Assembly (NCBI GenBank): GCA_032358255.1
Contig: JAULBX010008883.1
Span: 186,001-250,000, forward strand
DNA: 64,000 nucleotides
From: Heterotrichella gracilis
Taxonomy: Eukaryota; Sar; Xanthophyceae; Tribonematales; Xanthonemataceae
Direction of reading: 5' to 3'
Of this stretch, positions 31,089-55,800 are shown one piece after another. A program made the position numbers and the translations under genes. The notes under the pieces were generated by a model. The model was given only the letters and a program-made list of their open reading frames with translations, searched no databases and was not told the DNA's origin. Positions within the stretch are counted from its first letter, which is position 1, and every line of letters begins with the position of its first letter.

Positions 31089-34000
31089 ATGGCTTCGAGG
31101 GTTGCGCCTCGGGGGTTCCTGGCTTGCCTCTTAATGATCGCCAGCGCAGCTGCACTAGCTGCAGGTACGGTATTATGTGTGACAAACCCTGGTGTGTTAT
31201 AGAGCCGTGAATTAGTGCCAGGAACCCTCGACTAGGACGTTCTGGCTGACAGGCGCACTGAATAGGGTGTGCGAAACAGTGCATGCATGCTCTTAGGCTA
31301 CACAGCTGGCACTTCCCAGGATGTTGCCTTGACCCACGTTTCAGGCCTCTTTCGCCAACCACGATTGGAACTTTAGTTTGTTGTGAACCCTATCTGGGTC
31401 TACGCACTGCCTTTATTGAGGAGACCATTGATTTTGGAGGTGGCATTGAACCAGTCGGGACGGAATGTCGCATGCCGTACCGGGTTAGACATACGCTCTC
31501 TACTACACCAGTACGCAAAAAAGCTGTCCGAAAGATACAAAGAGTTTCTCACTGTGACGCAGTGCATTAGTTTTGCGTGAAAGTGCTGGCTGGATATCCA
31601 CCTCCTATGCATGCATACAGTACTCGTGTGCCTTGCTGCAGCAACCTAGGTTTGTTCAGCTTTGTCATCCCACACTCTTGTTATTTTGGTATTTATTTGT
31701 CTGGTTGGAAGGCAATCACCGCATATATCTACACTAGTCACTATTTATGCGGCGTCAACCCAGATCAACGGCCCCTTGGCCTTACACCTAGATAATGTGG
31801 CGCACTAGCCCAGGCTGGTCCCCTAGGCTGCAGTGGCATTGTACTGCACCCGGTTCCCAGAAAATGCATTGCACAACATTTAATTTTGGCTTGTGTTACC
31901 TAAGCCCCAGAACTAACTGTGGAGTGGACTTGCAACAAGGCGGATCGTGGGGGCGACCCAGGCATTGCAAGCGCTTGTGCTGCAGGCTCGCCACTGGTGC
32001 CTTGCGCAGGAGTGCACATGTGCCTGCTCTGTGTACTTACAAATCATTTTCCTGCAGGGCGGCAACTGCTCCAAGACGATGCCTACATCTCCCTTGATGC
32101 AGCGCAAGACGACTCAGGCACCGCTGTGCAGCCACCCACCACTGTCAACGCCCAATGGGCCCCCAGCAGCAACACCACCAGTGGTGCGCCTGCACCCGGA
32201 CCCAGCAGCGAGGATGACGCAGAATTCTTTGTTAAATACCTGGATGAGCATCTCACCTCGGAATCTAGGGATGCAGCGGACAGCGAGGCTGAATTGGTGA
32301 CGGTGATGGCGGAGTTTCTGCAGGACTCTTTGGTGCTTGACCCGGCTGCCGAGGCTGAGCAACCACTGTACAAGGCCTACAGCAGCGCAGAGGAGAGCAC
32401 GACTGTGTCTACCATGTCTATTGACCAAAGTAGGTGATGCAGGGTACTTAACAGGGTACAGGCATGCATGGAAGGGCACATGGCTCGTGTAATCACTAAG
32501 GGACTCATTGAGATGAACATCAGCAAGGCGTTGTGCTGTCTCTTGCCCTGGAGCCGATGCGTGGATAACCAGTAGTGCACCTTGATGCTCTTGTTGCACC
32601 TTGCAACCAGCAATGCATACGTGGCCATTTGCCAGCCACTGTGCACAACCAGGGCTGCCACTGCACTGTCGTTGCATGTCACTGACCCTCACCAACCGCT
32701 TTGCAAGAGCATGCCCTTCGCGACCACGGTGTACCAATAATATTGCACATTTAATTTTCATTTTGAATTAGCTTTCATATTTTGCTGACCCAGGTTCCCT
32801 GGACATGTACAAGAAGGCTCTGTCCCTCAACTTCTTCTTCTATGCGGCCCAGCGCTCAGGCAGGCTGCCCAGCAACAACCCAGTGGGCTGGCGGGGGGCG
32901 TCAATGCTGGGGGACAAGGCGCCAAACGGGCTGACGCTGCAGGGGGGTTACTTTGATGCAGGAGGTGCGCGTGCAGCAAACGGGCCTAGCCTATCAATGC
33001 AGCAAATTTATTCTTTCATTTTAAACTTCCAATTAAGCCCTGATCCCTGAGGGCAGTAAAATTCATAGCCCTGGGAACAGCAAAATTTTTGCAGCGTTCA
33101 TTTGGCATTAAGGAAGCGTTGCAGCTCATCTGACACACTGCCCTGTTCCCTCCCCTGCAGACACCCTCAAGTGCACCTTCCCCCTTGCCCTCACCCTCAC
33201 CCAGCTCACATGGAGCATGCTTGAGAACATGCAAGGGTACCGCGAGTCGGGCACAGGCGGGGAGGCGGTGGCCGCCATCCGGTGGGGTATGCGCTGGCTC
33301 ATGCAGGCGCACTACCAGGACAATGGGCTGGTGGTGCAGGTAAGGGGGGTAAGGGAGAGAGGGGGGGTGATGGTGTGAGGTTACTGCGCTGCTGGTGCAG
33401 GCAAGGCTTAGGGGGTGGGGGGCGATTTAATGGTGTGAGGTCAATGCGCTAGTGGTGCAAGTAAGGGGGGGAAGGGCTGTTGTGGGGTCAAGACTGCTGG
33501 TGTGGCGGGGTGGATACTGAGAGGATGTGTAGGGTTTTGGGGGTGACTGGTATTGGGTGGGCTTCTGGCAGCCACATTCTTATGCCAGATGGCTGCTTGT
33601 CACCATACAGTGAGATGCACGGGTGACGCTGGCCACCTAGTTTGTCCTTCACCCCCACACTCCAGCCCTCCGCATATCTCCCTCACTCCTTTCCACTGGT
33701 GCCACCAGGTGGGTGATGTGAACACAGACCACGCATACTGGGGCAGGCCAGAGGAGGAAAACGTGCAGCGCCCCGTGTTCGCAATCACTGCTGACAAGCC
33801 TGGGTCGGATGTCGCTGCGGGTGCGGCAGCAGCCCTTGCGGCTTGCGCGCAGCTGTTCCAGACTGCAGATCCAACCTTTGCCGGGCGCTGCCTGTGGCAC
33901 TCTGTCAGGCTGTACAAGTAAGGGGATGGAAACCTTTGAGCAAACCCCAGCTGTGCAAGTAAGGGGATAGAAAATCCTGAGCAAACCCTGTACAAGTGTG

Positions 34001-36163
34001 GGGATTTTAGAAAACCCTGATAAGCCCAGTGTTGTTGGTCAAATGTGTCAAGGTAATAAGATAATAATAGGACTATTATCATCTTATTACCCTTTAATGT
34101 GTATGCTGCTCCCTGATTCCTCCCCTTGCCCTCCCCAGGTTTGCCACCACCTACCAGGGCATCATGTAAATCTCCCCTCGCCCTTTATACTCCCCTTTTC
34201 AAACCTCATTTCATCCTGTTTCTCCCCTTGCCCTCCCCAGGTTTGCCACCACCTACCAGGGCATCTGGTCCGCCACCATGGACCCAGGCAAGGTGGTCTA
34301 CACATCATCTAACTTTAATGATGACCTGGGCTGGGCGGCCGCCTGGCTGTTTCGCCTCACGCGCAACCAGCAGTACCTGAAGGATGCGCTGCGCTACACA
34401 AGCTTGGCCACCACAGGTGGGTGGGTGGGTGGTGGTGTGGTGGTGGTGGGGGGGGGGGTGTGGGGGCTGGAATGCGGGTGTGTATCAGCTACGCGCATTG
34501 CATTTGAGTAGGGGACAGCCATGTAAGTGGTCCACGTGGGATGTGGCTTGTGAGCCAGATTCACAACCTGAACTGAATTTTGTAATGTGGTACCTTCTTG
34601 CATATCCCCCTGCACATCCCTCCTTGCATGACCCCCTTGCTTGGCCCCCTTGTATGACCCCCAACAGACTACAACGGCTTCAACTATGACAACACCTGGT
34701 GGGGCGCCAATGTGCTGCTGGCGGGGATGCTGCGCGACTCCCGGGGCAACCCCCACCGGGCAGCGCTGAGCAGCTTCTTCACAAACTGGATGGATGGCAT
34801 GCATGGGGTGGTGTACACACCAAAGGTGACGAGGGGAGGAATCGTGCATATACCAATTTAATTTGTAGTCCTACTGCAGTTCCCCGATAGGGCAATGAAA
34901 GGCGGTGCTTGTGTATTGACAATGGCATTTGGCCATGTAATGTAAGCATGAGTGCATGCATGCACTTGACTGTGTTTGCAGATCCAGGCATGTGCAGCAG
35001 TCATCCGCCTGCTTTACAAGCGTAGCATACCACCAACAGGAGTGACTCACATGCTGGTGCAGGGTCTGGCATGGATTGGCGACTGGGGCGCCAACCGCAA
35101 TGCCGCCAATGCAGCCTTCCTGGCTGTGATCCATGCAAAGACGCTCAAAGGGGATAAGAAGAGCCAGATGCTGTGCTGGGCGCAGTCACAGGTATGGTGG
35201 AAGGGCCTAGTTGCTGGCCAGTATGGAAGGAGTTTTTAGTTGCTTCCAGCATAGGCTTGCTCCATTCACATCCATTTGATGTTTGATGTAGCAGACCCAG
35301 TTCCATCACTCCCTACTCACCTGTCACCCTGTCGTGCTGCGGGATTCTTCTTGCTTAACCAGCACAAACATGGTTCAAGGGGGTGTTCTGTACCATTCCC
35401 GCACTTTGTTTGATTTCATCCATATATTGTTCCAGGTCAACTACATGCTCGGCCTGGTCCCCGGGGGTCATAGCTACGTGGTGGGGATTGGCAGCGGCTC
35501 CCCCCAGCAGCCGCACCACCGCGCCTCATCCTGCCCCGCCCGCCCAGCCAAGTGCGACTGGTCCGTGTTTGCCAGCAGTGCGCCAAACCCCAACGTGCTG
35601 TACGGCGCCCTAGTGAGTGGGCCGGGCAACCAGGACCAGTGGGAGGATGTGCGCAGCCAGTACCAGCAGAATGAGCCTGCGCTGGACTACAATGCGGGCT
35701 ACGCAGGTTGGTGTGGGTGGCAGCTTTGTTTTCTTTCATTATCATTATTTTTCGCGGCGCAAAAGTTACAAGGGCACCCGGGGCAAGGCACAGGCAAGTA
35801 GCAGCTTTGTAAAAGTAGAGGTTGATGTCTCAATAGTTACACTAAATATAATATTCCTTGTGGGTGCATAACTGTATCCTGTCTTTATTGCAACCCTCCA
35901 GCTCACCAGGGTTTACATCTGGCACTCATAAACCCTAGACTTGGGCTGCACCTGGTTACCCTCTGCCCTTACTGACCCTAAACCCTACACCCTGAACCTT
36001 GCCATATCTGGATTACCACCTGCACTCACCCAGCCATTTACCTCCTCCCGCAGGCGTCCTAGCTGGCATGATCCACAACCGCGACTCCCTGGACAGCTGT
36101 CCAGCTGTCATGGACCGCATTGTGCGCAGGAGGAGGTCAAAGCAGGGCAGGCGCCTGGCCTAG
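31089..36163 (+). CDS. Secreted glycoside hydrolase family 9 endoglucanase (cellulase)
   Basis: Exons: 31089-31164, 32058-32429, 32794-32964, 33161-33339, 33709-33917, 34241-34416, 34668-34825, 34982-35191, 35436-35706 and 36054-36163; 643 aa with every phase matching. Exon 1 is a signal peptide (GFLACLLMIASAAALAA). Residues 26-149 are an acidic linker with no recognised domain. The GH9 catalytic domain follows: ALSLNFFFYAAQRSGRLPSN, the nucleophile/base Asp in GGYFDAGD (split across exons 3/4), VGDVNTDHAYWGRPEE, PGSDVAAGAAAALA, the HHR motif in PQQPHHRASSCP, and the general-acid Glu in NEPALDYNAGYAG near residue 597. GH9 enzymes hydrolyse beta-1,4-glucan; in a green alga the role could be wall remodelling or scavenging of external cellulose. 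No CBM is seen. The C-terminus is short and basic (RRRRSK). Confidence 0.93.
33323..33466 (+). repeat. Echo copies of the donor junction after exon 33161-33339
   Basis: The junction TGGTGCAGGTAAGG at about 33331-33344 recurs downstream as GCTGGTGCAGGCAAGG (about 33397) and AGTGGTGCAAGTAAGG (about 33452), each preceded by a GGTGTGAGGT(T/C) block. These are decayed tandem copies inside the intron. Confidence 0.6.
33905..34003 (+). repeat. Three tandem echoes of the donor junction after exon 33709-33917
   Basis: GCTGTACAAGTAAGGGGATG at the true donor is repeated as GCTGTGCAAGTAAGGGGATA (about 33950) and CTGTACAAGTGTGGGGAT (about 33988), each followed by GAGCAAACCC-like spacer. Unit about 40 nt. 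Confidence 0.75.
34119..34265 (+). repeat. Duplicated 3' splice site plus exon start (GH9 gene)
   Basis: The stretch from CCCCTTGCCCTCCCCAGGTT through TACCAGGGCATC occurs at about 34121-34162 and again at about 34223-34264. Only the second copy continues into the coding exon; splicing to the first would add about nine codons and then reach a stop. Confidence 0.85.
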
Positions 36164-37982
36164 AGACACCATTTGTGCTCAATGGAAACCACAACGGGTA
36201 GAGAAAGGGGGTACGGTACTGGTTGTGGGCAGTGAGGAACAAGGAGCAGGCGAGAAGATTACTAAGCATGTGGCAAGATGGCAGGAGAGCACCTGAGCTG
36301 ACCTGAGTAAATGAATCATACAATTGCTATAAGGCAGCGTGATGTTGACAGCCATGGGTAGGGGGGAGGGGGGAAGCAGCCTGGGGATGGGCAGGGATGG
36401 ATCAGCACTGCTGATGGTCACATTACAACAGGCTGGCTGCGTGGTGGCTTGTGGCATCAATAGCCAGGCGGGCAGTAGGCCCATTGTGTCCGAACACCAT
36501 TGATTCTTCCGCGTATACTTTTTTCAGCAGCTGAAGGACCATTAACTTAATAACTTGGGCGCAATTGTTGCCTGGATGAGCTGTGGGCTTTTTTTGTTTG
36601 TTTTACCATCCATCAGACTGCCTTACTCGCCCCAAACCACTACTGTCGCATCAATACCAACAACGAGGTATGATAGATTGGGCTAGTTTTCAAGATGCCC
36701 ATCATGCGTAACATGCCGTTGTCTCCCCCACACTACGGTTTCAGCACCTAATTACCCACGTTGTGGGGCGCTGCAAAGCATTGTGCATGTGCAACTGCGC
36801 TAGCAAACCTCCTCCCATTAGCTGAAATGCATTTTACAATTGATACATCTTGCCAACGCATGTTATTAATCAGACGTACGTATTCAGCTAACTGGCTTTT
36901 AATTGAGCAAGTTGCGTGATAATTGTTTGCGCCCAACAAGCGTAGTTTTTGTTCAGCATGATATTATGAAAATTTCATTTAATGACGATTTACACCTAGG
37001 TCCTAGGCTAGGACCAGGTATAGCTTCCGCAGCCCGCCTAAGCCCACATTGATGAGCCCTTATCCGTACGTTTCGTTTGCACAACTGCTGCACCCGGTCA
37101 TCGGCATTGATTACAGTTCAGTCACCACAATTCTGAATCATTGGCAAGGTAAGAAATACAAAAACGCCCTCAATGACAGCCATTTTTTTGCAAGTGGAAT
37201 TGCCCTCCACAAGGGGGGCAATTGCCATCAACACCAGCTTTTTGCACCAGCTTTTTGCACACGCATCATTCAATGCTTTTGCTTTTGAACAAATCCTTCT
37301 AAGTTCTTTCAACAGCCCAACATCATACCTCCAATATTTTGTAAACCAACCCAAGTTTTTCAACATGCGTATGTCAAATCTACCTATCATTTATTGTACA
37401 CAGCGGGTTCCCCAGAAAAAATGGGCCGCTGGAACATGGGTATGGGGAAAATTGCCAGCTTGTAAAATACATGACACCATACACCAAGTGGGGTCTGCTA
37501 ACATGGCCCACTTGTTTGATAAAGGTACATATACAGCTTCCATCCGCTGTAGATTGGCGGTCCCAATATAGTCATGTGTCGTCCCAGTACACATCGTACA
37601 ACTCGCAATCCTATAATCATCGCCATTAACAAATGTACACCATCACAGGATGCAAGTACAGCGCACCCAATACGCAGTCATCCCGCCAAACAATGTTCCA
37701 TCTCAAAAAGAGTTGCTCTCAGATATCAGTCTGCCTGCCAAACCACGCCTCCATCCCAAAGGATGCTCTCAAATTTACACTGCAAACTCAAAGCAGTTCA
37801 CCCTAAACATGTTGTTGCAACAAATCCTAATCCATATCAATCATACTGCAATACCCATCGCTTCAACCAATCGTACTCCAATCACCAATGCTGCTGCATC
37901 AGCCACTCCTGCAGCGCTCCACTCCAAGCCCCAGCCCCCCCATCACTTTTTGTACTCGTAATTGCTCCCTCCCTCCAGATGT
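36164..37982. other. Intergenic region between convergent GH9 and HAD genes
   Basis: Contains both 3' UTRs. The stretch 37570-37980 is strikingly poor in G on the + strand (A/C/T-rich). No exon is supported. Confidence 0.5.
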
Positions 37983-39909
37983 TCAGCCATACGCATGCAG
38001 GGCCATGCGCGCCCTGCTCCCGAGGATCACGCCCCTGGGCTCCAGCACAAACTGCTGAATGGCCTGCGCAACCCCATCCTCACTATTAGCCCCCACCACA
38101 TAGTCTGCCGCCGCGCGCGCCCCCGGTCCCGCGTTTCCCATTGCCACCGCCACCCCCGCCATCTCCAGCATCTCCACGTCGTTCTCGCCATCCCCAAGGG
38201 CCATGATTGAGGATGCGGGGATGCGCAGGTAGTTGAGCAGCCAGGCCAGGCCGGCGCCCTTGGAGGCAGACAGGGGGAGGACCTGTGCAGGCAAGGAGGG
38301 GATAGGTCAGCCACTGCAAGTGGCATGTTTCTTCTGTGGGGTCAAAAGCTAAAAGTACAAGTATCTGCTTTCTCCAGACGATTTAGATGAACTTGGGTGT
38401 AGAAATGAAACATGTTAATAAAGGGGCATTATTGTTGCCACCAGTGTCCATTCCTGGGCCTGCCCTGCATGGCTACTGTACGCACTTCGATGATCAAACC
38501 AACCCTGCCTGCCCCAGGCCGGCTAACAGGGATGCACCAGCCCGCACCCCCTCCCCTCGCCCCTCACCTCCAGCATCCCCTTGAGCGCGGTGGTGAAGCT
38601 CACCCTGCCCTTGAACCGCTCCTCGGCCAGGGGCCGGATCTGCTCGATGCGCTCCTGGCCCTCCATCAGGATCAGCTTCTGCACCCGGACGCTGCCCACA
38701 ACCCCCTCCAGGGGCCCCACCGCCTCGGGGGGGGGCTCCTTGTAGAACAGCAGGCGGTCGGTGTGACGGTTGATGGCGTTGCACAGGATGCGGTCGCCGC
38801 TGTAGGCGGTGAGGGTCAGGCCTGTGGGGGAGAGGGATAGGGTTAAGAGGTGCAGGAGGGAGAGGGTGGGATTTCCAGGGTACAGGTTTAACTGGCAGTT
38901 GGGCGACACGAGCTTGCAAGGCATGCATGGAGGTGAGGGAAGGGAAGCAGACATTGGAGGCGTATGTGGTGGTGAGGACAAGTGATAATAAATATGGTGT
39001 TTGGCATGAAGGGTTTGTAGGGTTTTGCCCCCACCGTGCTCCTGTGCAAACTCGATCACTTCCAATACCAGTGCGTCCTCCAGGCTGCGGCTGTACAGCA
39101 CCTCCCCGTTGCACCCGCACACCATCAGCCCCTGGAGAAACACACCGGGCAGGCCGGCGCCCAGGCGGGGCAGCACCTCGCGCGCCCAGGGACCGTAGGC
39201 CTTGCCAGTGGCCACGATGGCCTGTGGGGGATAGCAAAACCCTAGGTTAGGGCATAAATGGGCATGGGGTGCATTGGCCTCCAATGCACCCCTTGGTGGG
39301 GTTGCGAGTGCTTGGGCAGAGTCATAGTCTACAGAGTTGCCACATCCCTTGGGAGATGTGGGTCTCGGAACCACGAAGAAACACGCACGGAAGCAATGCA
39401 CAGTGGCGGAGATGGCCTGGCCATGCACAGATGCAGCTCATCACCCACCGGCACGCCCAACGCAGCTGCGGTCTTCACAGCCCGTTCCACCCGGTTAGTC
39501 AGCTCCTGTTGCGGGTTGAGGAGGGTGCCGTCCACGTCGGTGGCGATGAGGCGGACCGGGGTGGCGAGGGCATGGGTGGGAGGCGCCAGGCGAGCGGGCC
39601 GACACCGCTGTTGAGTTTGCTGCGTGATCTGCACCACAACCGGTCGCAATCAGAGGGCTTTGTGGAGCGTATGGGTTGCAGGTGAAGCGCTGCGTGCGCT
39701 GGCGTTCGTTCCGGAGACTGTGGGTTGTGATGGCGAGATATGGATGCACGAGATGGATATTTCTGCAACAGTACCGCAAAGTCGGGAACCACCAAGGTGG
39801 TGAAGGTCCTACAGCTGATATGATAGGGAATCAACCGACTCCAACCGTTCAAGAGCCGTACCTTATTGGTGAATGCGTGTCGAGCGGTAGACAAGGGGTG
39901 GCTTGCCAT
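37983..39909 (-). CDS. HAD-superfamily phosphatase, Cof/type IIB-like
   Basis: Exons read 39909-39862, 39628-39449, 39221-39035, 38821-38568 and 38282-37983; 322 aa, phases consistent. All four HAD motifs are visible: motif I LIATDVDGTLLNP (nucleophile and acid/base Asp near residues 47 and 49), motif II in the AIVATGKAYG segment (Thr in VATG), motif III Lys in SASKGAGLAWLL (near 231), and motif IV MALGDGENDVEML (near 251-260). The cap between motifs II and III is of the C2B kind. Cof-type enzymes dephosphorylate sugar phosphates, nucleotides or vitamin B6 phosphate; the substrate is not predictable here. The first 16 residues (MASHPLSTARHAFTNK) resemble an organelle targeting peptide, and the junction to exon 2 is in phase. 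Confidence 0.88.
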
Positions 39910-40831
39910 GCTGTTCAACACTGTCTTCTAGAAGCCAAGGGGTCTGGGTGCGCCACGAAACAGGGCAGGTGTCGGCGAGCAAAGAGTACCCACTACAAAA
40001 GGGCGTCAAAACAGGAGCTGGCAGTTGCAACGCTATTCCTTGAGAGGGAGTTCCGTCTTTTAAACCTCAGATCACCCTGTCGGAAACCACCCTGTCGGCA
40101 CCACCCATGTGTGTGTATCTCTGTATCCGGGTACTAGCAGCAGGGAAACGCACCACAACACAGCCACAAGAGGGACAGGTACCAGATGATGGCGCAGAAG
40201 GAACAATTTGTGGTGAGTGTGCACCTCAATCAAGCGTTTTATGTCGGAGGTTGCCTGGCCCTGCAAAAAGCTGATACTGCTGACTCGGACTTTTGGGCAG
40301 TATCAGATACGCAAAGTGCACTTCCAATTGCTGACCTGATTTTGGGTCGCTGCAACTTGTAGTGCAAGGACTTGCAACTGACAGGCCCAGCTGGTTATGA
40401 GTGTTCGCTTGGCCAAACTAGCTGTTTCTTTACGTTGTTGTGTCTCAATGGTGGTCACCATGGTGGTCATGCCATATGCTGCTGGGGAGGCAATGGCATG
40501 TGGTGCACCAAGCCACATGCGGTCAATACGATGCCCAGTGTGTCGTTTGCACCATTCTTGAGGAGAGATGGCAACGCACTTTTGCAACACACGTGAATGG
40601 CTTGTGTGCACACAGTGTCGCCGCAACTCCCAGGATGCATCAGTGGGGCGGTGATCTTAATGTTGATGCTATTATATTCCCCTCCAGAAATCACCCCCCG
40701 CTGGCATCTGCATGATATTTGCCATCCCCTATGTCCCAAAATTGTCACACGTGGTGCCCAACGGCTCCGGCTGTACACCCTCACACCCCCCTTTGCAATC
40801 CCCCCCCTCCGGTCCCCCTTCTATCTTCTAT
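39910..40831. other. Intergenic region
   Basis: Upstream of the HAD gene and downstream of the unrecognised minus gene. A plus open frame across 39676-40137 overlaps the HAD first exon and shows no coding features. Nothing recognised. Confidence 0.45.
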
Positions 40832-43642: not shown

Positions 43643-45277
43643 ACTAGTTAAAAGCGTCTTTGCGAAACTTGACACTGGTTCCGTTTAAGAGCTAAAGACA
43701 CAACAGGGCAGTATGCACCCAGTTAGTCCAAAGGTGTCAGGACCCATCTGACCTTCGATAGGTCCACGATCAGATGACGCAGACTGTCGCTAAGCTCTTG
43801 TGGGTCTTCCATAAACGACAGGGACTACTGGTTAGCACCTTTATCTCCTCTACCCCTGTCAAGGATGCCATACGTGGTCGAGAAACAAACGCATGCATGC
43901 ATGCAGTGCGGCGAACAGTCACTGCCTCAGTCACATGCAGATGCCGTGGACTCAGCAAGTGCCAATGCGATATGGGCACGCTCTTTGGACCAGTGTGTTT
44001 TTGAAGGTTAGCATGCACATCAGCGTTCTGACAGTTGCTGGAAAAATGGGGGAAGCCTTATCACTATGCCTGCACAGTTTCCTCCCCGCCTGCCTGCGTG
44101 GTTTCGGGTGTCACGACACACTCGTTTGCATGCACCTCTCGACACCGTCACGGAGGCAACAAGCAAAGCCCTGTTATAGCCAAGATGGCTTCCACCGCAA
44201 GGGTTATGGCCAAGCCATATGCGTGGGAGCACCTTTGGACTGCCTGTACACACCGTTTACACCGCACGGCAGTTGACATTTGGTGATATTGATAGCAATA
44301 CCAGACCACTCAGAGTCCAAAAGGGTGTGTAGCCCTTGTACACACTTTGGAGAGTCGGTCCCTTCGGTCCAGTGGGTGGTTGTTGATAAACTGCAGAGGA
44401 GTATAGCAAGACATCAATTATGGGGGCCAGGTTGAGTCGAAGCAGAGAGTCAAGAAGGAGCTCAATACAAGGTAGGCGGATTTGTGCGCAAAGGGCTTTC
44501 CCTGCCTCCAACAGAGCAGTGTCAAAACGTGCGGGCTGCTGTTGATCTCGGGTTGTTTGTTTCCCATTGCTGGTAGCTATAGCGCCTTAGGTGGGGTAGC
44601 TATAGCGCTATGTGGCCATGTGGCGAGGGGCGAGGCCACAAGGACACCTACAGCGCAAGCGTGTATGGGTTTTGGAGGCTGAAATCTTATCCTCCAGGGT
44701 CTTAACTTGTTCTCCATGATCTTAAGTTGTCCTGCCCCAACAAGCTCGCCTCGGTTTTCAAACCTCTCGCCATCTGCATAGCGACTCTCGGAAGATTTGC
44801 CTCGAATGGATCAAATCCACACAGTTTCGTTAAGTGCCCACTTGCCAAGCTGTAAAGCCGATCCTTGGCCGCCTATCGCCAGACGTGAAGCGTTGCATGA
44901 ACACTGAAGCACAGAATCATGAAGCGTTGCATCTCAATATAGCTTCCATCCTGGGGTAGTGTGTACCAGGACCAGCGCTTTTACGCCGTTCATGAATATG
45001 CACGCACAGTACCTAATTTCCTTAAGGCTGGATACGAATATACTTTTAAGCTATACCGTATAGTATGCTTCTTCATTGTGTGTTTGCAGACATGCATGTG
45101 CTTTGGGTATGCCAACCATGATGTCATGTGGCACTAGAGTCATGACCTCCCATGCAGACTCTCTGGTGCTGAACAAACACCCACAACGGGGTTGCACTTT
45201 AGATGGTCTTTCCCAATATATGCCCTATTCGCTTGCTGCTTACACGAACCCCTGCTAGACACACCACCTTTTGCCAG
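43643..45277. other. Intergenic region with candidate upstream minus-strand exons
   Basis: Two minus-strand stretches look coding: about 43835-43763 (SLSFMEDPQELSDSLRHLIV, then DLSK and a GTCAGA donor) and 44511-44257 (IELLLDSLLRLNLAPIIDVL, then TPFWTLSGLVLLSIS). They could be 5' exons of the 40832-43642 gene, but phases could not be joined, so they are left out of it. Confidence 0.35.
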
Positions 45278-46950
45278 GCGGCCTACCATTGCCGACAGAG
45301 TACAACATACCACCACTGGCCAAAGCTTTTGCCACTGACGTTGGCAGCACCCCACCCAAACCCAACCCATCTATATTACTGCATCCGCACACGCCATCCC
45401 CCTCCCACACCCCACCCACCCCAACCCCCGCAGGCCGCAGCCCGGTCCCCACCACCCCCCACCCACCCCCCACAACGCATGAAACCATCTCCTCCGATGA
45501 GCTCCTGGCCTTCCAGCTGGAGGCCCTGCGCCGCACCCTAGAGGGTCGCCCCTCCCCTTTTGACCACCACCACCAGGAGGGGCGGCGCAGGGGGAGCGAG
45601 ATACGCAGGGATGCGGCGGAGGAGGGGATGCGCCACCGCCGCTTCGCCATCGACCTCTTGGCGATAGAGGGCAGGCCGGTGCGTATGCATGATTTAGTAA
45701 ACTGCATGTTCAGGCATGCCATGCACGCCAGTACTCGTGTGCGCATCGTTGGTGCTTGGCTTGTGATGGCACTGATGGCACTCCTCTTGACATTATGGCT
45801 AATCATCCACGTTGCCTGCTTGCATGCAGACTTCTCGCCAGCCGCCAATGTGAGCAGAAATGATGTTTCTTCCCGTTTCCATGCCGCCTCTCAGCCTGAC
45901 CTATTAGGACATCAAAAAATGTGGACCCCTACTTGTCCTCGCACGATCATAGACCATGGTGCTCATCCCTAGAACTAAGCAGACCAAATGCTAGGGACCT
46001 ACTTATACTCGTAATTGCATCCCTCCTCCCCCCTTGCAGCACAACAACATCCATCTCCACAAGTCATTGACTAGCTATGCCAAAACTGTCTTGAACGAAC
46101 CCCACCGTGCCGTTCCTGCAGCACAACGACATCCTGCTGTACCGCACCCAGACCGTGGTGTCATGGGAGCGCCTGCACAGCGTGCTCATGGACCTGCCGG
46201 GCTTCAACGACTACGAGGCGTGGCTGGCGCTGGACGAGGGCAACGTGAAGCGGGGGGTCAAGCCAAGCACGCTCACAAAGCTGCAGGCGGTGCGTGGCGC
46301 ACCCAGAACCGTGTCATGTTACCCTAGGAGGGAGGTGATGAGCGGTGCAGGGCTTTCAACTCGGCACTTTGCGCTGCCCGTTTGTGGAGGGTGCACGGTT
46401 ATATTCGTTTAGTTTTCTTTTAATCTTCTATGTTTTAAGGAGAGCACTCATATTTGTAAAGATTTCTGCATTCCCTGCCGTGTTTATACACACAATATGT
46501 GCAGCTAATACCAATATAATGCATCATCCCTTGATATACGATGGCCTGGATCTACTCTCTGGAAAGCCTCCTGACCTCTGGCCGAGCAACCTGACCCCTG
46601 AATACTACTTTTTAGATGTGTTATTTCGTAGCATGTGCTCAAGCTGACATGAGGCATTTTCTTATCAGCTTCTGTCCCACTCACAGGCCTCCTCGCCCTG
46701 CACCAGCACGGACGAGTGCCACATCTGCCTGGAGAGCCCGCCACCTGGCAGGCCCCTGCTGCAGCTGCCCTGCTGCCACAGCTACTGCGCAGGCTGCATA
46801 GGCACCTGGCTGGCGGACCACGACACCTGCCCCGTGTGCAGGTTCAGGTTCCCGGAGGCTGACACCCAGCTGGTGCATGGGCCGGGGTGCGAGTGCCCGG
46901 GTTCGGGTGTGATAGCCAGGTGGCGGACGAGGGTGCCTGACGCGGGGTAG
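45278..46950 (+). CDS. RING-HC zinc-finger protein, putative E3 ubiquitin ligase (5' end incomplete)
   Basis: Exons: about 45278-45678 (or 45434-45678 if a Pro-rich part is intron), 46122-46289 and 46687-46950. The first holds a Pro/His-rich stretch, then helices (SSDELLAFQLEALRRTLEGR, MRHRRFAIDLLAIEGRP). The second encodes HNDILLYRTQTVVSWERLHS and PGFNDYEAWLALDEGN. The last is a C-terminal RING: CHICLES, LPCCHSYCAGCIGTWL, then CPVCRFRF, giving eight zinc ligands in C3HC4 order. RING proteins of this kind usually recruit E2 enzymes for substrate ubiquitination; the target is unknown. The stop is TAG at 46948-46950. No start codon was identified, since the first exon is entered in phase 1, so an upstream exon is missing. 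Confidence 0.78.
46036..46138 (+). repeat. Echo of the RING-gene exon acceptor
   Basis: TTGCAGCACAACAACATCC (about 46035-46053) matches the true junction CTGCAGCACAACGACATCC (about 46116-46134). The upstream copy lies in the intron about 80 nt before the exon. Confidence 0.55.
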
Positions 46951-47024
46951 GCGGCCACAACGGTGGGGTTGTTTCTTAGGGGGGATGTGGGGGTTGTTTT
47001 CCTGTGTTAAGGGCTGCGCACCGG

Positions 47025-47145
47025 AGGTTGCCATGGCTGGCGGGCCACGACACCTGCCTTGTGTGCTTGGAGGGCCTCGGGGACCAGGGTAAGTGCCCAA
47101 CGCATGGTGGGCGGGCAAGGGGTGCCGGATGCGGGGTAGGCAGGC
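47025..47145 (+). pseudogene. Truncated tandem copy of the RING exon 3' part
   Basis: The stretch matching TGGCTGGCGGxCCACGACAC and the following CTGC..TGTGTGC, then GGTGCCGGATGCGGGGTAGG, repeats 46800-46845 and 46931-46952 in the same order with the part between shortened. It encodes only a remnant (WLAGHDTCLVC) and cannot form a RING. It is a degenerate 3' duplicate of the adjacent host gene. Confidence 0.7.
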
Positions 47146-48558
47146 TTGCGGGTACTAACCCTGCTAAGGGTTTTGTTGGGGGGGGGGGGGAGATACTTTC
47201 TCCATGATGGGGGATGTCAATGTATATAGAGAGAGAGGGCTCGTTTGTTTCCGGGGTTTTGTTAGGGTTGTTGTACACGTAGCGCTTTGTTCCTTCCGTT
47301 GGTTTCTGCCGTAATGGCTCTAGATTTTTCGCGTAGGCGTTGGTTGATTAGACAGGGTGAGAATGCGCACTGCATAATTGCAGGGCCATCAATTACTCAC
47401 CCAGCAGGCTGCGTGCCACTAGAATTTGCAAGGTGCACGCCATCCATTTTCACAGAGGGGTGTAGGGGCAATGCCATACTGCCGGCTAGCTGTTTTCATG
47501 GCGGAGTGGGCATCACCGGCCAAGTTTGCACATCTGGTTGATGCCTGTTCAGAATGCCGCACTGCATTGCATTCCACTGATAGTCGAGCTGCTGACCCAT
47601 TCATATATGCGCTTGCTATTGGCAAATTGAATGGCATTCCAGTCTGCTTGCAACCATAGTGGCACAGATATGTACCAACACATATGCATGTATCATAATT
47701 GCCCCAGGGGTGTAGCCGGTGTTTACCACCACAAACAGTCCCGCAAGATGGCAGTAATTTTCAATACTGCCATTCTATGCTGTTGCCATCAGGTGTGATC
47801 GGTGATTGCTTGCAACTATCACTGGCAAGCCGCATTGACAATCATTATGTGCACATGTACCAAGCCCACGCTTACAGCAGGGCAGCACCTTTTGTAAAGC
47901 TATTGTACACATGATCGCATGTCACACATTGTTGCACCTCGTTGGTTCTAACTTAAGCTAAAGCAGCTCGCAAGTGCCAAGTGGCACCCCAAGGCTTTGG
48001 TGATTCAGCTTCAGATTCTGAAGCGTCAAAATTGACACCGGGGTCCCCGAGGATGGACGCTATCATGGTCACATTTACACTGGCAATCAAACTGTCATGC
48101 GCTAGCACCTGTTGCCATCTGGTCACATACCAGGGGAATATCTTAGTATCATGGTCCTTCCCCAGTGTGGGGCACAGTACCCTCGTAAGGGTTTCATAGG
48201 TTGTTGCCATGTGGCCCTCCTCGTCTTATATGTATTTTCCCTCCCCTGCCTCATATGCAGGGGGGTGCCAATTTGCTGGCCGTCGCCAGTTGCTCTTGTG
48301 CTATGCCGTTGGCCATGCACAGTGCTTTTGTTTACTCCTGTCTGACACGTTGTCCTCAGGGTTACCTTGGTTCCAGTCCTTCTCACAAGTGTAGGCTCAA
48401 TAGGCCAATTGTGTAGTACATTCTATCCCATCGGCCCTGTGCAGTTTGCCAGCCCCGAGCATTTTACCCGGGTCCAGCCCTTGAGTGGCTGTGTTCCCTG
48501 TCCCTTTCACATCAGTTGCCTGTTAGGCCGGGTGTGTCATATATTTTACTAGTCAGTC

Positions 48559-48820
48559 CCCTCGCGTGTGCGAGGGCAGCTGATTGCTCCACTGGCCCTA
48601 CCAATCTAGGTAAGATTGTTTAGCTAGCCCGGTGGCATCCTACCCACAAGACCCCTTCGTAAAAGCCGTTGGGATCTTAGACACTACCTGCTTGTCCAAT
48701 TAGGAACGCAGTCAAGCAAACCTTATTGTAATACCTTTGGAATAGTAAGTTAAATCTTGTATACCCTTTGGGGAAGCAGCATTAGCCCTCCTGACCATTC
48801 CCGGCGCTGCCGGTGAATGG
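48559..48820. other. Non-coding stretch with two strong hairpins
   Basis: CCCTCGC-GTGT-GCGAGGG at 48559-48576 is a perfect 7-bp stem with a GTGT loop. CCATTCcCGGC-GCT-GCCGgtGAATGG at 48795-48820 forms a 10-bp stem with one bulge. No known RNA family was recognised by eye. Confidence 0.3.
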
Positions 48821-49314
48821 TACCTCGTGCATTAAGGCACAAATCATTAATATGGGTATACAATTTTACACCTCACAGGTACTGGCGCATGCACACGCCA
48901 TATCGCACGACAAAACAATTCAATAGACATGATCACAGCTGCCTAGCCCTGCCCATGAGCACCTGTCAAACAGAATGCGCAACGTGATTGTGCATGTCCT
49001 GGTGTGACGCCTTCTTGCCAATCGGATTTGTGCATCCTATAAAGACCTGCATAGCAGCCAACCTAACAAATTTCAGTCATGAATATACGTAAATACCTTG
49101 ACGATAGCTCAAGTTGAACATTGCCAACCATCATGCATGAAGAGGATACCACAATCAAGCAGTTGAAACGCCTTGAACGCAACACACAGTGTGGGTAAAC
49201 ACATCCACATAATTTGCGTCATGGTCTTGCAAAGGGCCCCAGGAACCCAAGATTTGCCCAAAGAAAACGTCACCAGTCGCCATCATCACTCCAAACCCAT
49301 TAACACCCACGCCA

Positions 49315-49396
49315 TGCTGGGCCATGCCATATGCTGGGCCATGCCATTTGCTGGGCCATGCCATATGCTGGGCCATGCCATATGCTGGGCCAGGCC
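49315..49396 (+). repeat. 17-bp minisatellite, about 5 copies
   Basis: Unit ATGCTGGGCCATGCCAT, tandem and nearly perfect (one unit begins TTG; the last is truncated and diverged). It lies in the 3' flank of the ArsM gene. Confidence 0.9.
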
Positions 49397-49518
49397 ACCC
49401 CATGCCCGGCTGTGTAGCAAGCATGGTCGCTGCGTGGCCACCATGATGCACGCCTACACGTCTCTCCATCCCCGCACTCCACCATGACCATCCCAGGGAT
49501 CAGCAGCAGATCTGGGGA

Positions 49519-51595
49519 TCAGCAGCAGCTCCCCGCAGGCGCCGACACCAGCCCCTCCGACCCTGTCCCAAACTCACCGCCCCCCGAGCACGCCCACCCG
49601 GCAAACAGCCCATAGTGCGTGCCCCTGTCCCCACCCACATTGAAGTGCTTGGACAGCCAGCTCACACCATTCTCCCCAACCATGGCCGCGGTGTTGCCGC
49701 ACACCTCCATGGGCTTGCCGGTCTCAAAGCGGTGCGACTGGTCCAGCTCGTAGGCGTGCGGGGAGCCCTCGATGGTGCCCTGCGCAGGCGCCACGTGGCA
49801 CGGCGTCATGGGCAGGCAGGTGACAGCAACTCCCTCTTGAGGGCACGGCATGTGACAGCTGCCAGGAGGTGGAACCTGAGCTTATGTGTCCTCATTGCAT
49901 CCCCCGTAGTAAATCAAATCTGCCAACCAATCCGCTCACCCATGGCAATCTCGAGCCCCCATCCCTCGAACCTCCCTCCCCTTTGCCCCACCCCCCACCT
50001 GGTACACCGCCATCTGGCCATAGTCCTCGCACTTGCTCTCCAGCAGGCCCGGCAGCTTGAACAGGCGGTAGGTCACCGAGTAGAACCTGGCCTCGCCCAC
50101 CAGCTCCTCCAGCTCCTGGTTGTTGATGGTGATGGGGGCGCTGGTCACCACCCGAGGGTCGGCAAATCCCACCGCTGCTGCGATGCGCTTAAAGTCCTCG
50201 AGGTACAGGGAGCCAGAGATGCACTCGCCCCACAGCACCTGAGAAAGGGGTTTTGGTAGGGTGCGGAAGTGGTGGCAGTGCGGCTCACCCAATGTGCATA
50301 GCAACGTCCAGGATATCCCAGGGAAGGATTTTGATCTTGGGTAGCTCATGCTGCACCATATTTATTAACATGCCGGGTACTCTGGGTTACGGTTTGGGGT
50401 AGGCTTTTTGCATAGGTCCAATGGCACCCACCTTGTTGGTTTTGAGGTGCTCCGGCAGGCGGCGCGAGCAGTACACATCCGAGAAATACATCTCCCCCCC
50501 TGGCGCCAGCACCCGGTACGCCTCCCTGAGCACCCGCGGCTTGTCGGGGCTCAGGTTGATCACACAGTTGCTGATCACGATGTCCACCGATTCATCCGCG
50601 ATCCCGGCCTGATCCAGGTACTCGATGGTGCCCTTCACGAAGCGCATGTTGGGCTTGGAGAAGCCCAGGCGGGCACAGTAGGGGCCCACGTGCTTGCGCG
50701 CCACCTGCGCGAGGGTTTTGGGGTGGGCACGCAAACCCTAGGATAGGGTTCATTGAAGGTGCACTGCTCGAGGTAATTGTACGTGGATGCGAGCTCTTGC
50801 CAAGGCCTTCACGCAATTCTGGTGTTTGCGTATCCATCTGGATATAACCATATGCATAGCTGTGGACCCTAAATTGGTGCAGTTGCGAAAGCATTCATGC
50901 TCATCCCAAGGCTGTCACACTTGAAGAGACTGATGCAACAGCGGCTAAATGGGCACATCCCCATTTGCTGATGTGTTAGGTGCACTGGCACTGCCCCCAT
51001 GGGCCTTCACCCCCACCTGTAGTTGCTCTTCCGTCATATCCACCCCTGTCACGCTCCCCTCCTCGCCCACCAGCGCAGCAGCCACATAGCAGTCCCGCCC
51101 GCTGCCGCTGCCCAGGTCCAACACCCTTAAACCCTTGATGCCCAGCGGCAGCGGGGCTCCACAGCCGTAGAACTTTGACACCACCTCATCCGGAACCTGC
51201 ACCAGGCAGAGCAAGATCAACGAAACGCATGAAGGGTGCCAGGACCGAGCTGCTTGGCGCCGCATGTGCAAGGCTGACTGTTAGCCTGGCTGTACTGCTG
51301 GGATGCATGTACCTAACCTGTGCCAAGATCCACATGTAGAAACCCTGCTCAAGTGCACGTAATCCACCTGTGCCAGGAGCTGCTGGATGCGCCTGGGTGG
51401 CCGCACGCAGGCCACACATGCGTTGGTTTTTAGGTCCTTGGACTGGCTCAGGACCTTGCCGTAGTAGTCTTGGACCTCTTCGTAGGTGGAAGGGGTGCCG
51501 TTGGCTGTGCCATTGGCTGTGCCATTGGCCTTGGGTGGTGCGGGGGCACAGGCACCAGAGGTGGTACCACAGCAGCTCTGGGATGTGGCTGCCAT
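49519..51595 (-). CDS. arsM: Arsenite methyltransferase (ArsM/AS3MT)
   Basis: Exons read 51595-51368, 51196-51017, 50704-50432, 50238-49999 and 49779-49519, every junction in phase 0; 393 aa. It transfers methyl groups from S-adenosylmethionine to As(III), yielding methylated arsenicals. The SAM-binding motif is LDLGSGSGRDCYVAA (about residues 102-116), followed by GVDMTEEQL. The three conserved arsenic-binding cysteines of algal ArsM are present: in KTNACVAC (C60/C63), SNCVINLSPDK (about C183) and WGECISGSLY (about C233). YYGKVL, FYGCGAP and LAPGGEMYFSDVY are also typical. The N-terminus carries extra cysteines (SQSCCGTTSGAC) and a short NGTANGTANGT repeat; the C-terminus ends with a Cys pair. 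The length is normal for the family. It probably acts in the cytosol, as no targeting peptide is evident. Confidence 0.95.
51236..51318 (+). repeat. Dispersed short repeat, copy D (ArsM intron 1)
   Basis: Reads GAGCTGCTTGGCGCC, then AGCCTGGCTGTACTGCTGGG and ATGCATGTA. It matches copies A-C and is antisense to arsM in the 51197-51367 intron. Confidence 0.6.
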
Positions 51596-52859
51596 GGGAG
51601 TGCTAGCCAGTGGGTACAACAGGCTTGTGGATTATCTGGCTACTTGATCAGAACTTGGGCGGTTCTGCACAGAGCAGTGGAGATTTTGGAGGTGAGCGCA
51701 GCTGACTGGCTAGTTAGGGCAAGTTTTTGGATGGATTACAGGTGCAGCTCCGGCGGGCGACGAGAGGAAGCTACAGAAAACTAAGACAGGCCCCGGAAGG
51801 TGGTCCTATTTTTCTACCCGGCTGTGGAACACGTCCTCGTATGCTCAAGGCATTCAAGGCCTTGCAGAGGATCAAACCAACACACTCGATTTACGAGTCA
51901 ATCGTCCCTGCCGTCCTCATCCACGGCACAGTTATGGCGGTACAACCTGGAAAAGCCACGCTCGGGGCGTGTGGTAAGTGTTGGCTAAGCTAGTTGCATA
52001 TGCATGCATGCTGGCCGCACCTTCTCGCTAGTTCGCAACACTGGCAATGGAGGAGCTGAGTAATAGAGGGGTGAAATATGGTTAGTGCGTTTGTTGTTCA
52101 ACCCCGCAGGTGTGTTTACTCGCACCCTGTATTTGTGCAGAGCCTGAGGCCGTATATGATTTACTTCTGCCAAAGTTCTCCAGCACCACTGGCAGCTGTA
52201 GGTCAGGGTTTGATAGGGTTTGCCCTTACATGCATATGGGCAACAGACCTATCTGCATTTGCAAGTGTGGACCGTTGAAAGCCGTGTCCAAGGAACGCTG
52301 ATCCCTGCTGAATGATTCATACTTCAACCAATGTGTTTCGCCGCTTCAAAGTGGGTGGTTCGCAAGGCTGGCATATCGTAGTTGTTGCCCACACCCTAGG
52401 CTGTAGGCTAGAGTCTCTGTGACTTCTTCTTTCAGTGGGCTGGGCTCAGTGGTCACACGTCAATACAGTAGTTACAGTGGGCTGTGGGATCTGGACTGAC
52501 CATTAGGAATGCTGCGACACCCCCTGTTCAAGTGGCAGAAAGGTGACAAGGGCGCAGCGCATCCACGAAACACGTTGCACACCTGCCACTGGCGGGCTGA
52601 AGAGGTATAAGCAGGCCAGGTGAGGCCCCAACCATTGCTCCCCTTACAGGGCAGTAAGGGGGATTCTGTGGGCTGGTGACATATCCCATGTGACAATTGG
52701 GTGACACGGTCCTCGTCTGTGGCGGGAGAAGACAAGGCGATCATGTCAAAACATCTATGCGTAGCCACGACATGAACCACAGGTTCAGTCCCAAACCACG
52801 CGCAGTTGAGATCCCAGGCAGGCAGGGGCGCAGCCGGCGGCTTGTTGCGGTGCGGGCGG
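51596..52859. other. Intergenic region
   Basis: Holds the ArsM promoter and the 3' UTR of the U2AF-like gene. No exon is recognised on either strand. Confidence 0.5.
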
Positions 52860-55800
52860 TTACGGGCCCGGCGGGGGCACAATGGTGAGGAAGTGGTCTG
52901 CCGTGATGTGCGCCACGCTGACTATGCTGCCGGCAAACATGCGGCCGTGGATGGCGGTCAGCGCCTTGGCCGCACTGGCGCTGTCCAGGTACTGGATGAA
53001 GGCCTGCGGGGGGGGTGGATGGAGGTGGGTGTGGGCACATGGTGGTTTAGGGTATTGGCTCAGGATTTAGGGTTTAAGGACCATGGGACGACGTCATATG
53101 ATGTGCAAATACACAAATCAGGAGAGGCAAACACACAGAGGTACGGGCGCGTGTGGGCACATGGGAGGCATCACACAAACCACTAGAGGAGAGGCAAACA
53201 CACTCCATTTGGTGCGCTTCACATTCAAGGGGCGTGGAACACATTCTCTTGATTGCAGATGAAGGACACAATCGCAACCCAGAAGACGACATGGTGACCG
53301 CATGGAACAGCGGCCCTTCACCGGCGGACACAGGCCGCCAGGCACAGCATGAGCACTAGCGTGCGGGTGGGACAATGGGCACCCACCGCATCGGCCCAGT
53401 GCAATCAAAGGCAGTGAGGACTGCGCCTGGAACCACCCTGCATGCCGCCTCAACCACCCTGCAGCTGCAACTTGAGGAGCCCCAGTCCTACACCCTAACC
53501 AGGCCTGCGCCACAGCTGCGCCTGGCTCACCCAGCCCTGGTTTAGGGTTTTGGGTTTGGGATTGGCTCACCTTGCTGCAGCTTAGGGTTTAGGGTTTGCG
53601 ATTGGCCCCCCTTGGCCTTGTGCTCAGAATTAGGGTTGGCTGTAGGGTTGGCTTACCTTGCCGTAGTTCTCCTTTCCAAACAGCTCCGGCACGGTGGTTG
53701 GGTCTGCTGGTCGGGGGATGAGTATGCGCAGCACCGTGCCGTACTTGTTGCACTCCTCCATCAGGTCCTCGATGGCCTGCAGGCAGGGTTTAGGGATTAG
53801 GGTTAGGGAAGTTGTTGCATTCCTCCATAAGGTCCACGTTGGCCTGCGTTTAGGGTTTAGGGATTAGGGTTTAAAGAACTAGGTGCATTCCTCCATGAGG
53901 CCCTCCATGGCCTTCGTTTAGGGTTTAGGGTATTTGTTGTACTCCTCCTCGAGTCCTTGATGGCCTGGGCAGGGCGGGAGGGAGGGCTGAGCGCAGGTTC
54001 GAAATCGTTTGCTAGAGTTGCTCATGCACATGTGTCAATACCCACAAGGTATCAGGGCAGAAAAGAGGGCTAAGCACAGGTGCTACCTCCAGCATTATAA
54101 CCACTCTGCATAATTGGGTACCATAGCCACACAAGGGACTGGATGAATCCAATTCGCTCCCCATGGCATAGAAATGATGTAGGAGGTGCCAGAGGCAGAT
54201 TTTCCCCCTTAACCCTGCGGGGCAACCAACCAAAACCCTAAACCCCAAAACTTGAACCCCACATGGGTCCTTCCCCACCCACCTCCCGGTACTCCCCGTC
54301 ATCCAGCAGCGCCGCAGGCGTGATGACCCCCTCCAGGCGGATGAAGGGGGTGGGCGTCAGGGTCAAGCCGTCGGGGGTGACGGCCTTGGCAACCACACCG
54401 CACCCATCCTCGCCATGGTCAACCTGAGGAGGAAGGAGGAGGTGGGGGGGTCAGGATGGGGGGTACAGTATTCTTAAAGAGTAAATTTTATTTTTATTTT
54501 TATACATAATTTTTATCAATGGGGGATACAGTATTCTTAAAGAGTAAATTTTATTTTCAGGATGGGGGGTACCCATAATGGCACGGTGGTTGGGGTCGTG
54601 GCAACTACCTGCCTCCCCGTGGCTGCACAATGGAAAAACGCGGCACCCCCGTCGCCCCTCACGTGGAACAGCAGTAGCATTTGCAATGCCTGCTGTGTCG
54701 CTGGGCATCCATGCAACTAACCAACTTTCCCTGGGCACCAGCCCCCACTGCACACCCCCCCGCCGCGCCTCACCTGGAACAGCAGCAGCGCCTGCGAGGC
54801 CTGCTGCGCCGCCGCGTGCGCCTTGAGCGGGTCCACATACCCACTGGGGCGACCCACGCTGATGGCCTGGCCAAGGAGCTGAACCTGCAACAAGAAAAAG
54901 AAATCCCTTTCGATATGTAGATTGAAAGGAGATTATGGTTTTATTTGGGTACTTAAATCACCAAATATATTCAAGGGTGAGTGAGTAACCCTCGCGTGCC
55001 GAGACAAAGAGAAAGTCAGCAGAAGCAGTACGCACAGCGGCCTTGCATGAGGAACGGCACCAATAATAATATAAGAAAACCCACCAGTAAAAAAGGGAAA
55101 AAATTGCAAGTGCAACCAGTTGGACATTTGTAATCATAGTGACTCACCTGGCCGCTGAGCGTGAGCGACGCGCTGGCCATGTCGGGCGTGCGCAGCTCTA
55201 CAAACGCGTAGCGCCCCTCCGAATGCATGGACACATTGACCACTGGGTCCACCCCGGGGGCCACCTTCTCGGGGAATGCCGCAATCATGGTGGAGTTGAA
55301 CAGCTGGCGCAGGGCGTCCTCCGTCACCAGGCCAGCCACCAGGTTGCCCACATACACCTGAGGGTAGAGGATTGGAGATAACATTCAGAAGAGATTTGTG
55401 GCTGATAATTTGATGCGTTTCTGTGGTGGTTGTGATGAGGAGGCGGGGGGATGGCGCCGGGTGGTGGGGGTGGCGGGGTGGGGGGGAATAGTGGCATGGG
55501 CTGGCAGGGCAAGGTTGTGGGTGGAGGGGCAACAGGATGCCAGGGGTGGGGATCAAACGGAGGCGTTGCAGTGTGGCAGGTGCGCATCCCTAGACTGGCT
55601 GCAGACACACAGTAAAGAAGGCGCAAGCTTGCATTAATTTAGGGTTCATTTAGGGTTCGCTTAGGGTGCCGCATGTGCGTGCGCTATGCGAGGGTGCGTG
55701 AGTGAGGGAGAGGCGGGGTTCCGGCCCCTGCCACCACCTACCCGCCGTACCTCCCGCTGCGTCTTGCTGGCCGCGGCCACAGCGGAAGCTGCCTGCTGCT

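What the first reader, a model, noticed from the sequence alone, without database searches (positions are those of the whole stretch)
33323..54820. Recurrent 'echo' duplications of exon-intron junctions
At least seven places carry decayed local copies of a neighbouring splice junction with 20-100 nt of exon: GH9 (three), MPND-like, U2AF-like (two) and RING. Both donors and acceptors are affected, and copies sit 40-250 nt from the source. Chance similarity cannot explain matches that include the splice site and flanking exon each time. This suggests a repair or replication process that repeatedly duplicates short segments at these boundaries, and a route to new exons or alternative splice sites.
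Basis: partly seen in the sequence, partly recalled or inferred. Interest (0 to 1): 0.78.

Follow-up and report, generated by a model that had tools for sequence, protein, structure and literature searches.

The report
Decayed tandem duplications spanning splice sites
Several introns in this algal-looking DNA really do hold worn copies of their own exon edges, but they look like ordinary scars of broken-DNA repair, some patched with telomere repeats, rather than a process aimed at splice sites.

Summary
The echoes are real and not chance. Of 92 exon edges, 8 match their own intron at score 26 or more (0.44 expected from cross-intron controls); 40 tiles of the window hold a local direct copy against 0-2 in ten shuffles. 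Five of the seven named cases are splice-junction copies in the stated range. The MPND case is real but lies near 9.6-9.9 kb, outside it. The RING case is an exon piece copied behind the stop codon.

They are local direct duplications (18 direct, 2 inverted clusters); five arrays are tandem with units of about 40-111 nt. Boundary targeting is not shown: junction tiles carry copies as often as intron tiles (13/231 and 47/785), and a position-blind simulation gives 31-37% junction events against 8 of 14 observed (P 0.035-0.10).

Unreported before: interstitial telomere repeats (CCCTAAA)n are frequent in the introns and sit in three echo arrays. At the MPND donor one lies between 20-nt direct copies, and the older echo resembles the empty site. 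Best reading: end joining of staggered breaks, sometimes with telomeric filler, then decay. Both are known kinds; only their combination at splice sites is fresh.

The parts
33317..33476 (+). GH9 donor array: 61-nt unit (23 nt exon + 38 nt intron) at 33317, echoes at 33378 and 33438
   Evidence: functional donor 33340
33909..34006 (+). GH9 donor array: about 41-nt unit (9 nt exon + 32 nt intron), copies at 33909, 33950, 33988
   Evidence: functional donor 33918
34112..34265 (+). GH9 acceptor duplication: about 50-nt copies (34112-34163, 34215-34265) separated by about 50-55 nt without convincing match; upstream copy could form a 27-nt exon 34139-34165
   Evidence: functional acceptor 34240 agrees with the gap-free alignment to a solved GH9 enzyme
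9424..9917 (-). MPND-like donor duplication: functional 9827-9910, echo 9580-9664, spacing 247
9784..9848 (-). (CCCTAAA)2 between two 20-nt direct copies (9829-9848, 9784-9803) at the MPND-like donor
   Evidence: (p 0.012, one of 20 tracts tested)
54591..54812 (-). U2AF2-like donor: 111-nt tandem unit (39 nt exon + 72 nt intron), functional donor 54773, echo donor 54662
53711..53979 (-). U2AF2-like acceptor array: functional exon start 53776 and three upstream copies (53843, 53911, 53964), each followed by telomere repeats
   Evidence: functional site agrees with the gap-free alignment to human U2AF65 across the junction
53523..53660 (-). U2AF2-like donor array: 40-nt unit with telomere repeats; functional donor 53656, echo donors 53570 and 53530
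   Evidence: the donor test itself scores only 21
46035..46134 (+). RING-gene acceptor: 18-nt copy (46035-46052) of the functional exon start (46117-46134)
   Evidence: score 31; 1 of 2070 cross comparisons reaches 30
46807..47141 (+). RING last-exon pieces (46807-46839, 46922-46952) copied behind the stop codon (47034-47066, 47110-47141); not a splice junction
51295..51378 (-). weak ArsM-like donor copy, overlapping a dispersed repeat
   Evidence: (score 21)
54451..54572 (-). intron-interior duplication (39 nt, 97%, spacing 63) in U2AF2-like intron 54424-54773: same type of event away from a junction
61326..61347 (+). telomere repeat tract 20 nt upstream of an acceptor, without a flanking duplication

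Best explanation
The echoes are short direct duplications left by error-prone repair of staggered double-strand breaks: both overhangs are filled in and the ends are joined, giving a tandem copy of the stretch between the two nicks. Events fall anywhere. Inside exons most are removed by selection. Where the unit spans a splice junction, the copy attached to the exon body stays functional and the other decays inside the intron, so it reads as an echo. In some events telomere repeats were added as filler at the break, giving copy - (CCCTAAA)n - copy, and later rounds duplicated exon edge and telomere tract together (U2AF2-like acceptor and donor arrays). Shown here: the copies, their direct orientation, adjacency in five arrays, telomere tracts between copies, and no clear excess over intron interiors. 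Inferred: breaks, fill-in, end joining, telomerase and selection as agents.
For: 18 direct against 2 inverted clusters within 300 nt, coding repeats included. Adjacent units at the two GH9 donors, the two other U2AF2-like arrays and the U2AF2-like 111-nt pair, whose unit ends also match. Junction and intron tiles equal, 13/231 and 47/785; interior events of the same type (54451-54572, 53119-53203). Telomere tracts in introns: 12 C-rich-sense and 5 G-rich-sense loci against 0.38 and 0.12 in shuffles. The sequence behind the MPND echo aligns better to the functional copy if telomere tract and second 20-nt copy are skipped (score 40, P 0.0065) than if not (25, P 0.157), as an internal empty site would. 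Literature: tandem duplications by CST-Pol alpha fill-in and NHEJ (PMC8355091: abstract, introduction, discussion and passages read); telomere insertions at breaks, a minority with target duplications, attributed in the horse to staggered breaks (PMC2246262, PMC7215372: passages read).
Against: The GH9 acceptor pair is 96-98% identical over about 50 nt with about 50-55 unmatched nt between, so it is not a plain tandem duplication and needs filler. Junction events are somewhat more frequent than simulated (P down to 0.017 under one count). Of 20 telomere tracts 4 have flanking direct repeats at p<0.05, and only the MPND one lies outside the U2AF2-like arrays. Telomere tracts might have been there before the duplications. 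No relative, reads or RNA were available.
Confidence: 0.7

Rival explanations
1. A process that prefers exon-intron boundaries (breaks at R-loops or G-rich donor regions, or a splicing-coupled mechanism) makes the duplications there.
For: 8 of 14 events at junctions against 31-37% simulated, P 0.035-0.10, 0.017-0.14 by other counts; both duplicated GH9 donors begin GTAAGGGG.
Against: Equal tile density in junctions and introns; 10 of the 14 events sit in two genes, GH9 and the U2AF2-like gene (my count), so they are not independent; donors and acceptors are both hit.
Confidence: 0.12
2. Selection keeps the copies because extra splice sites serve regulation, for example poison splice sites in the U2AF2-like gene.
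For: Several echoes keep good sites: GH9 acceptor echo 16.9 and real site 17.1; U2AF2-like echo acceptors 15.3 and 11.1; use of any of the three U2AF2-like echo acceptors, read on without further splicing, gives an early stop; a GH9 echo could be a 27-nt in-frame exon.
Against: Other echoes are weak or dead (MPND -4.8, U2AF2-like 53912 at 2.9, GH9 GC donor 3.0); copies diverge by about 2-26%; no RNA data.
Confidence: 0.08
3. Replication slippage without a double-strand break made the tandem copies.
For: Tandem direct units of about 40-111 nt.
Against: Does not readily give telomere filler or the unmatched stretch at the GH9 acceptor; I did not test break-point microhomology.
Confidence: 0.1

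Closest known systems
Small tandem duplications from staggered double-strand breaks (CST-Pol alpha fill-in plus NHEJ; PMC8355091, which cites rice and plant-genome work that is not held here)
   Same: Short direct tandem units without apparent sequence specificity
   Different: Old, decayed copies in an unknown eukaryote; agents inferred; two spacings (111, 247 nt) exceed the <100 bp class
Interstitial telomeric sequences inserted at breaks (PMC2246262, PMC7215372; passages read)
   Same: Short telomere tracts in unique DNA, a minority flanked by direct target duplications
   Different: TTTAGGG type; frequent in introns and some next to splice sites; no ITS-less orthologue, only an internal empty-site-like copy
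[quoted passage not shown]
   Same: Tandem duplication involving splice-site sequence
   Different: Here the copy lies inside an existing intron near its source, not at the opposite end
Telo boxes of plant genes (PMC3022908, passages read)
   Same: Short AAACCCTA motifs in genes
   Different: Here tracts of about two to three repeats in introns, six of eight independent C-rich-sense ones near an acceptor

Membership tests
Small tandem duplication (break-repair class) | Direct, adjacent copies of a local segment | tested here: met
   18 direct versus 2 inverted clusters; adjacency seen for both GH9 donors and the three U2AF2-like arrays; not for the GH9 acceptor, which has filler, and not established for MPND, RING or ArsM
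Small tandem duplication (break-repair class) | Arises at staggered breaks through fill-in and NHEJ | not testable with these tools
   needs recent events with known ancestral state or repair mutants
Interstitial telomeric sequence inserted at a break | Telomere tract in otherwise unique DNA beyond chance | tested here: met
   19 overlapping matches against 0.4 expected; 17 intron loci against about 0.5
Interstitial telomeric sequence inserted at a break | Empty site in a relative | tested here: inconclusive
   no relative found in viral contigs by pattern scans that reach close relatives only; internal empty-site-like copy at MPND
Intron gain by tandem duplication | Copy of the donor-side exon end at the acceptor end of the same intron | tested here: not met
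   the four donor copies scoring 29 or more lie at intron offsets of about 32-248 (positions plus 8), not at the 3' end; only the first 400 nt or so of each intron were searched
Introner or transposon family | Many introns with the same full-length sequence | tested here: not met
   self-BLAST of the window at E<=1e-4: 16 matches, only an about 80-nt dispersed repeat shared between introns; this window only

The most novel reading that the evidence does not exclude
Telomere repeats laid down at breaks serve as ready-made splicing signals: the C-rich strand CCCTAAA in the transcript offers pyrimidines and CTAAA/CTAAC branch-point-like motifs, so a duplicated acceptor arrives with its own working 3' splice-site region and telomerase-type filler feeds splice-site evolution. 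In favour: 6 of 8 independent C-rich-sense tracts end within 60 nt of a real acceptor and 0 of 5 G-rich-sense tracts do (Fisher 0.021; grouping by hand and threshold chosen afterwards), and the functional U2AF2-like acceptor has such a tract directly upstream.
Probability: 0.15. Interest if true: 0.7.

Novelty: new member of a known kind. Interest (0 to 1): 0.36.

Why it matters
It shows how ordinary repair scars can look like boundary-directed duplication when only exon edges are compared. [quoted passage not shown] A genome with many such tracts in introns would be a good place to do so.

Tried and rejected
Tandem exon duplication giving alternative exons: rejected for the U2AF2-like acceptor copies, which run into stops or frameshifts, and for copies that are only fragments. 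Intron birth by proto-splice-site duplication: copies are at the wrong end. Introners: no shared full-length intron in the window. Filler from elsewhere in the window: the GH9 filler has no convincing source; the MPND filler matches only telomere tracts and short stretches. Relatives: no viral contig carries the GH9 DNA pattern, and peptide-pattern scans found none for the U2AF2-like or GH9 proteins; bacterial and archaeal genomes were scanned with an ArsM-like query only (not used). Part of the C-rich heptamer excess near acceptors is composition (7 introns against a shuffled mean of 1.72, maximum 6 in 1000; reversed control 3). By single heptamers the proximity signal is weaker: 8 of 23 C-rich and 2 of 12 G-rich clusters within 60 nt, where 18.4% of intron length lies. 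Counting choices: the 14 events are 8 at junctions and 6 interior (my sorting; several are short); they leave out the U2AF2-like donor array 53523-53660; with it, 8 or 9 of 15. The simulation used the 35 of 45 introns without hits and assumed units of 30-115 nt. The ArsM intron 49786-50000 is wrong: it is still and was dropped; no telomere tract lies in it. One search was set in the wrong register and is replaced. The gene models are my own, without RNA; MPND intron 8713-9827 has a doubtful acceptor and may hold an unmodelled exon; the gene at 58.9-63.9 kb has no Pfam match (I call it NUP-like from a guess) and rests on coding bias, as does the NUMOD3 gene apart from its motif.
Full report
Setting. 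The window is eukaryotic DNA for which no genome is held. Its telomere-like repeats are TTTAGGG; a green alga is likely, by inference only. Gene models come from a small gene finder and manual correction.

Observation. Local direct repeats were listed by two methods. Five of the seven cases named are splice-junction copies in the given range: three in GH9 and two in the U2AF2-like gene. The MPND-like copy is real but lies at 9.58-9.91 kb. The RING copy is an interior piece of the last exon copied behind the stop codon. I add a third U2AF2-like array at donor 53656, a small RING acceptor copy, a short MPND copy of an exon start without the splice site, and a weak ArsM-like one.

Chance. Each exon edge (40 nt exon, 8 nt intron) was aligned to its own intron and to all others. 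At score 26 or more, own hits were 4 of 46 donors and 4 of 46 acceptors, against 14 and 6 of 2070 cross comparisons; at 34 or more, 3 and 2 against 0 and 0. Mid-exon chunks gave 1 of 136, a GGT-rich one. Over the whole window 40 tiles had a direct local copy, against 0-2 in ten block shuffles, and 18 clusters were direct against 2 inverted; the clusters include coding repeats.

Which sites are functional. The GH9 protein read through 33339/33709 and 33917/34241 aligns without gaps there to a solved endoglucanase, and the U2AF2-like protein read through 54283/53776 aligns without a gap to human U2AF65. At these three junctions the functional site is therefore the copy attached to the exon body, and the others are echoes.

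Is the boundary special? The fair control is the intron interior. Tiles over junctions carry local copies as often as intron tiles: 13/231 and 47/785, P 1.0; intron tiles include the echoes themselves. Outside the models the rate is lower, 31/2388; exon tiles have 36/493, much of it coding repeats. In one search I count six interior events not tied to a junction. A simulation that drops duplications uniformly and lets everything but the functional exon copy decay yields 31-37% junction events among those detected; 8 of 14 observed gives P 0.035 to 0.10, and 0.017 to 0.14 with other ways of counting. A modest preference is not excluded; it is not shown. Ten of the 14 events lie in GH9 and the U2AF2-like gene, so these P values are too favourable.

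Anatomy. Five arrays are tandem: 61 nt (23 exon, 38 intron) three times and about 41 nt three times in GH9, and in the U2AF2-like gene 111 nt (39 exon, 72 intron) twice, where even the ends of the units agree, a 40-nt array and a 67-68-nt array. The GH9 acceptor is different: about 50 nt at 96-98% identity, then about 50-55 nt without convincing match, so a duplication with filler.

Telomere repeats. The window has 19 overlapping matches to two TTTAGGG units with up to two mismatches, 0.4 expected. In introns there are 12 loci with the C-rich strand in the transcript and 5 with the G-rich strand; shuffled introns give 0.38 and 0.12. Three echo arrays contain such tracts. In the U2AF2-like acceptor array three upstream copies of the first 34-36 exon nt are each followed by CCCTAAA tracts, and the 67-68 nt unit includes both. 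At the MPND-like donor the tract CCCTAAACCCTAA lies between two 20-nt copies; the older echo 247 nt away lacks it there, and the sequence behind it aligns to what follows the second 20-nt copy (score 40, P 0.0065) rather than to what follows the first (25, P 0.157). That is what a telomere insertion with target duplication predicts. Against it: of 20 tracts tested 4 have flanking repeats at p<0.05, three of them in the U2AF2-like arrays, and the MPND value alone (0.012) would not survive correction for 20 tests.

Mechanism. Small tandem duplications form at staggered breaks when overhangs are filled in, by CST-guided Pol alpha-primase in mammalian cells, and joined by NHEJ (PMC8355091; abstract, introduction, discussion and passages read). 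Telomere repeats are inserted at breaks during evolution; duplications of the target were 6 of 130 rodent and 4 of 25 primate loci (PMC2246262, passages), and in the horse direct duplications were attributed to staggered breaks (PMC7215372, passages). The anatomy here fits both. The agents are inferred.

Splicing. Several echoes keep strong sites (GH9 acceptor echo 16.9, real 17.1), others are weak or dead. The GH9 upstream acceptor copy is followed by a GT that would define a 27-nt in-frame exon. Use of any of the three U2AF2-like echo acceptors would lead to an early stop. C-rich-sense tracts end within 60 nt of a real acceptor in 6 of 8 independent loci, G-rich-sense ones in 0 of 5 (Fisher 0.021; grouped by hand, threshold chosen after seeing the data; at 40 nt 0.075, at 100 nt 0.10). 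With single heptamers the effect is weaker and partly compositional. CTAAC and CTGAC are more frequent than expected 14-48 nt upstream of acceptors (3 against 0.5, 7 against 2.1), though pyrimidine runs such as CCCCT are more enriched still, so a branch-point role is conceivable, no more.

Novelty. Both ingredients are known. I did not find the combination of telomere insertions with duplicated splice junctions in nine answered searches of the held library, seen mostly as listings, which says little about subscription papers. I rate it a new member of a known kind.

Noticed in passing
8155-8234, 51238-51316, 27994-28050 (inverted), 10871-10905 (inverted): A dispersed repeat of about 35-80 nt (75-91% identity) in the MPND-like and ArsM-like introns, the NUMOD3-gene region and near the start of the MPND-like gene; possibly a small transposon.
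   Followed up: partly
315-1595 versus 2049-3270: Segments 78-94% identical at spacing 1.7-2.0 kb with related reading frames on the minus strand: probably a tandem gene duplication.
   Followed up: no
19172-19198: Telomere-like tract of almost four repeats outside the gene models, upstream of the long open frame 20082-21776.
   Followed up: no
26885-29636: Gene with a NUMOD3 motif, usual in homing endonucleases and their regulators (recalled), here in a multi-exon eukaryotic model.
   Followed up: no
46039 and 46121: In the RING gene the echo acceptor scores much better (14.8) than the functional acceptor (6.3).
   Followed up: partly
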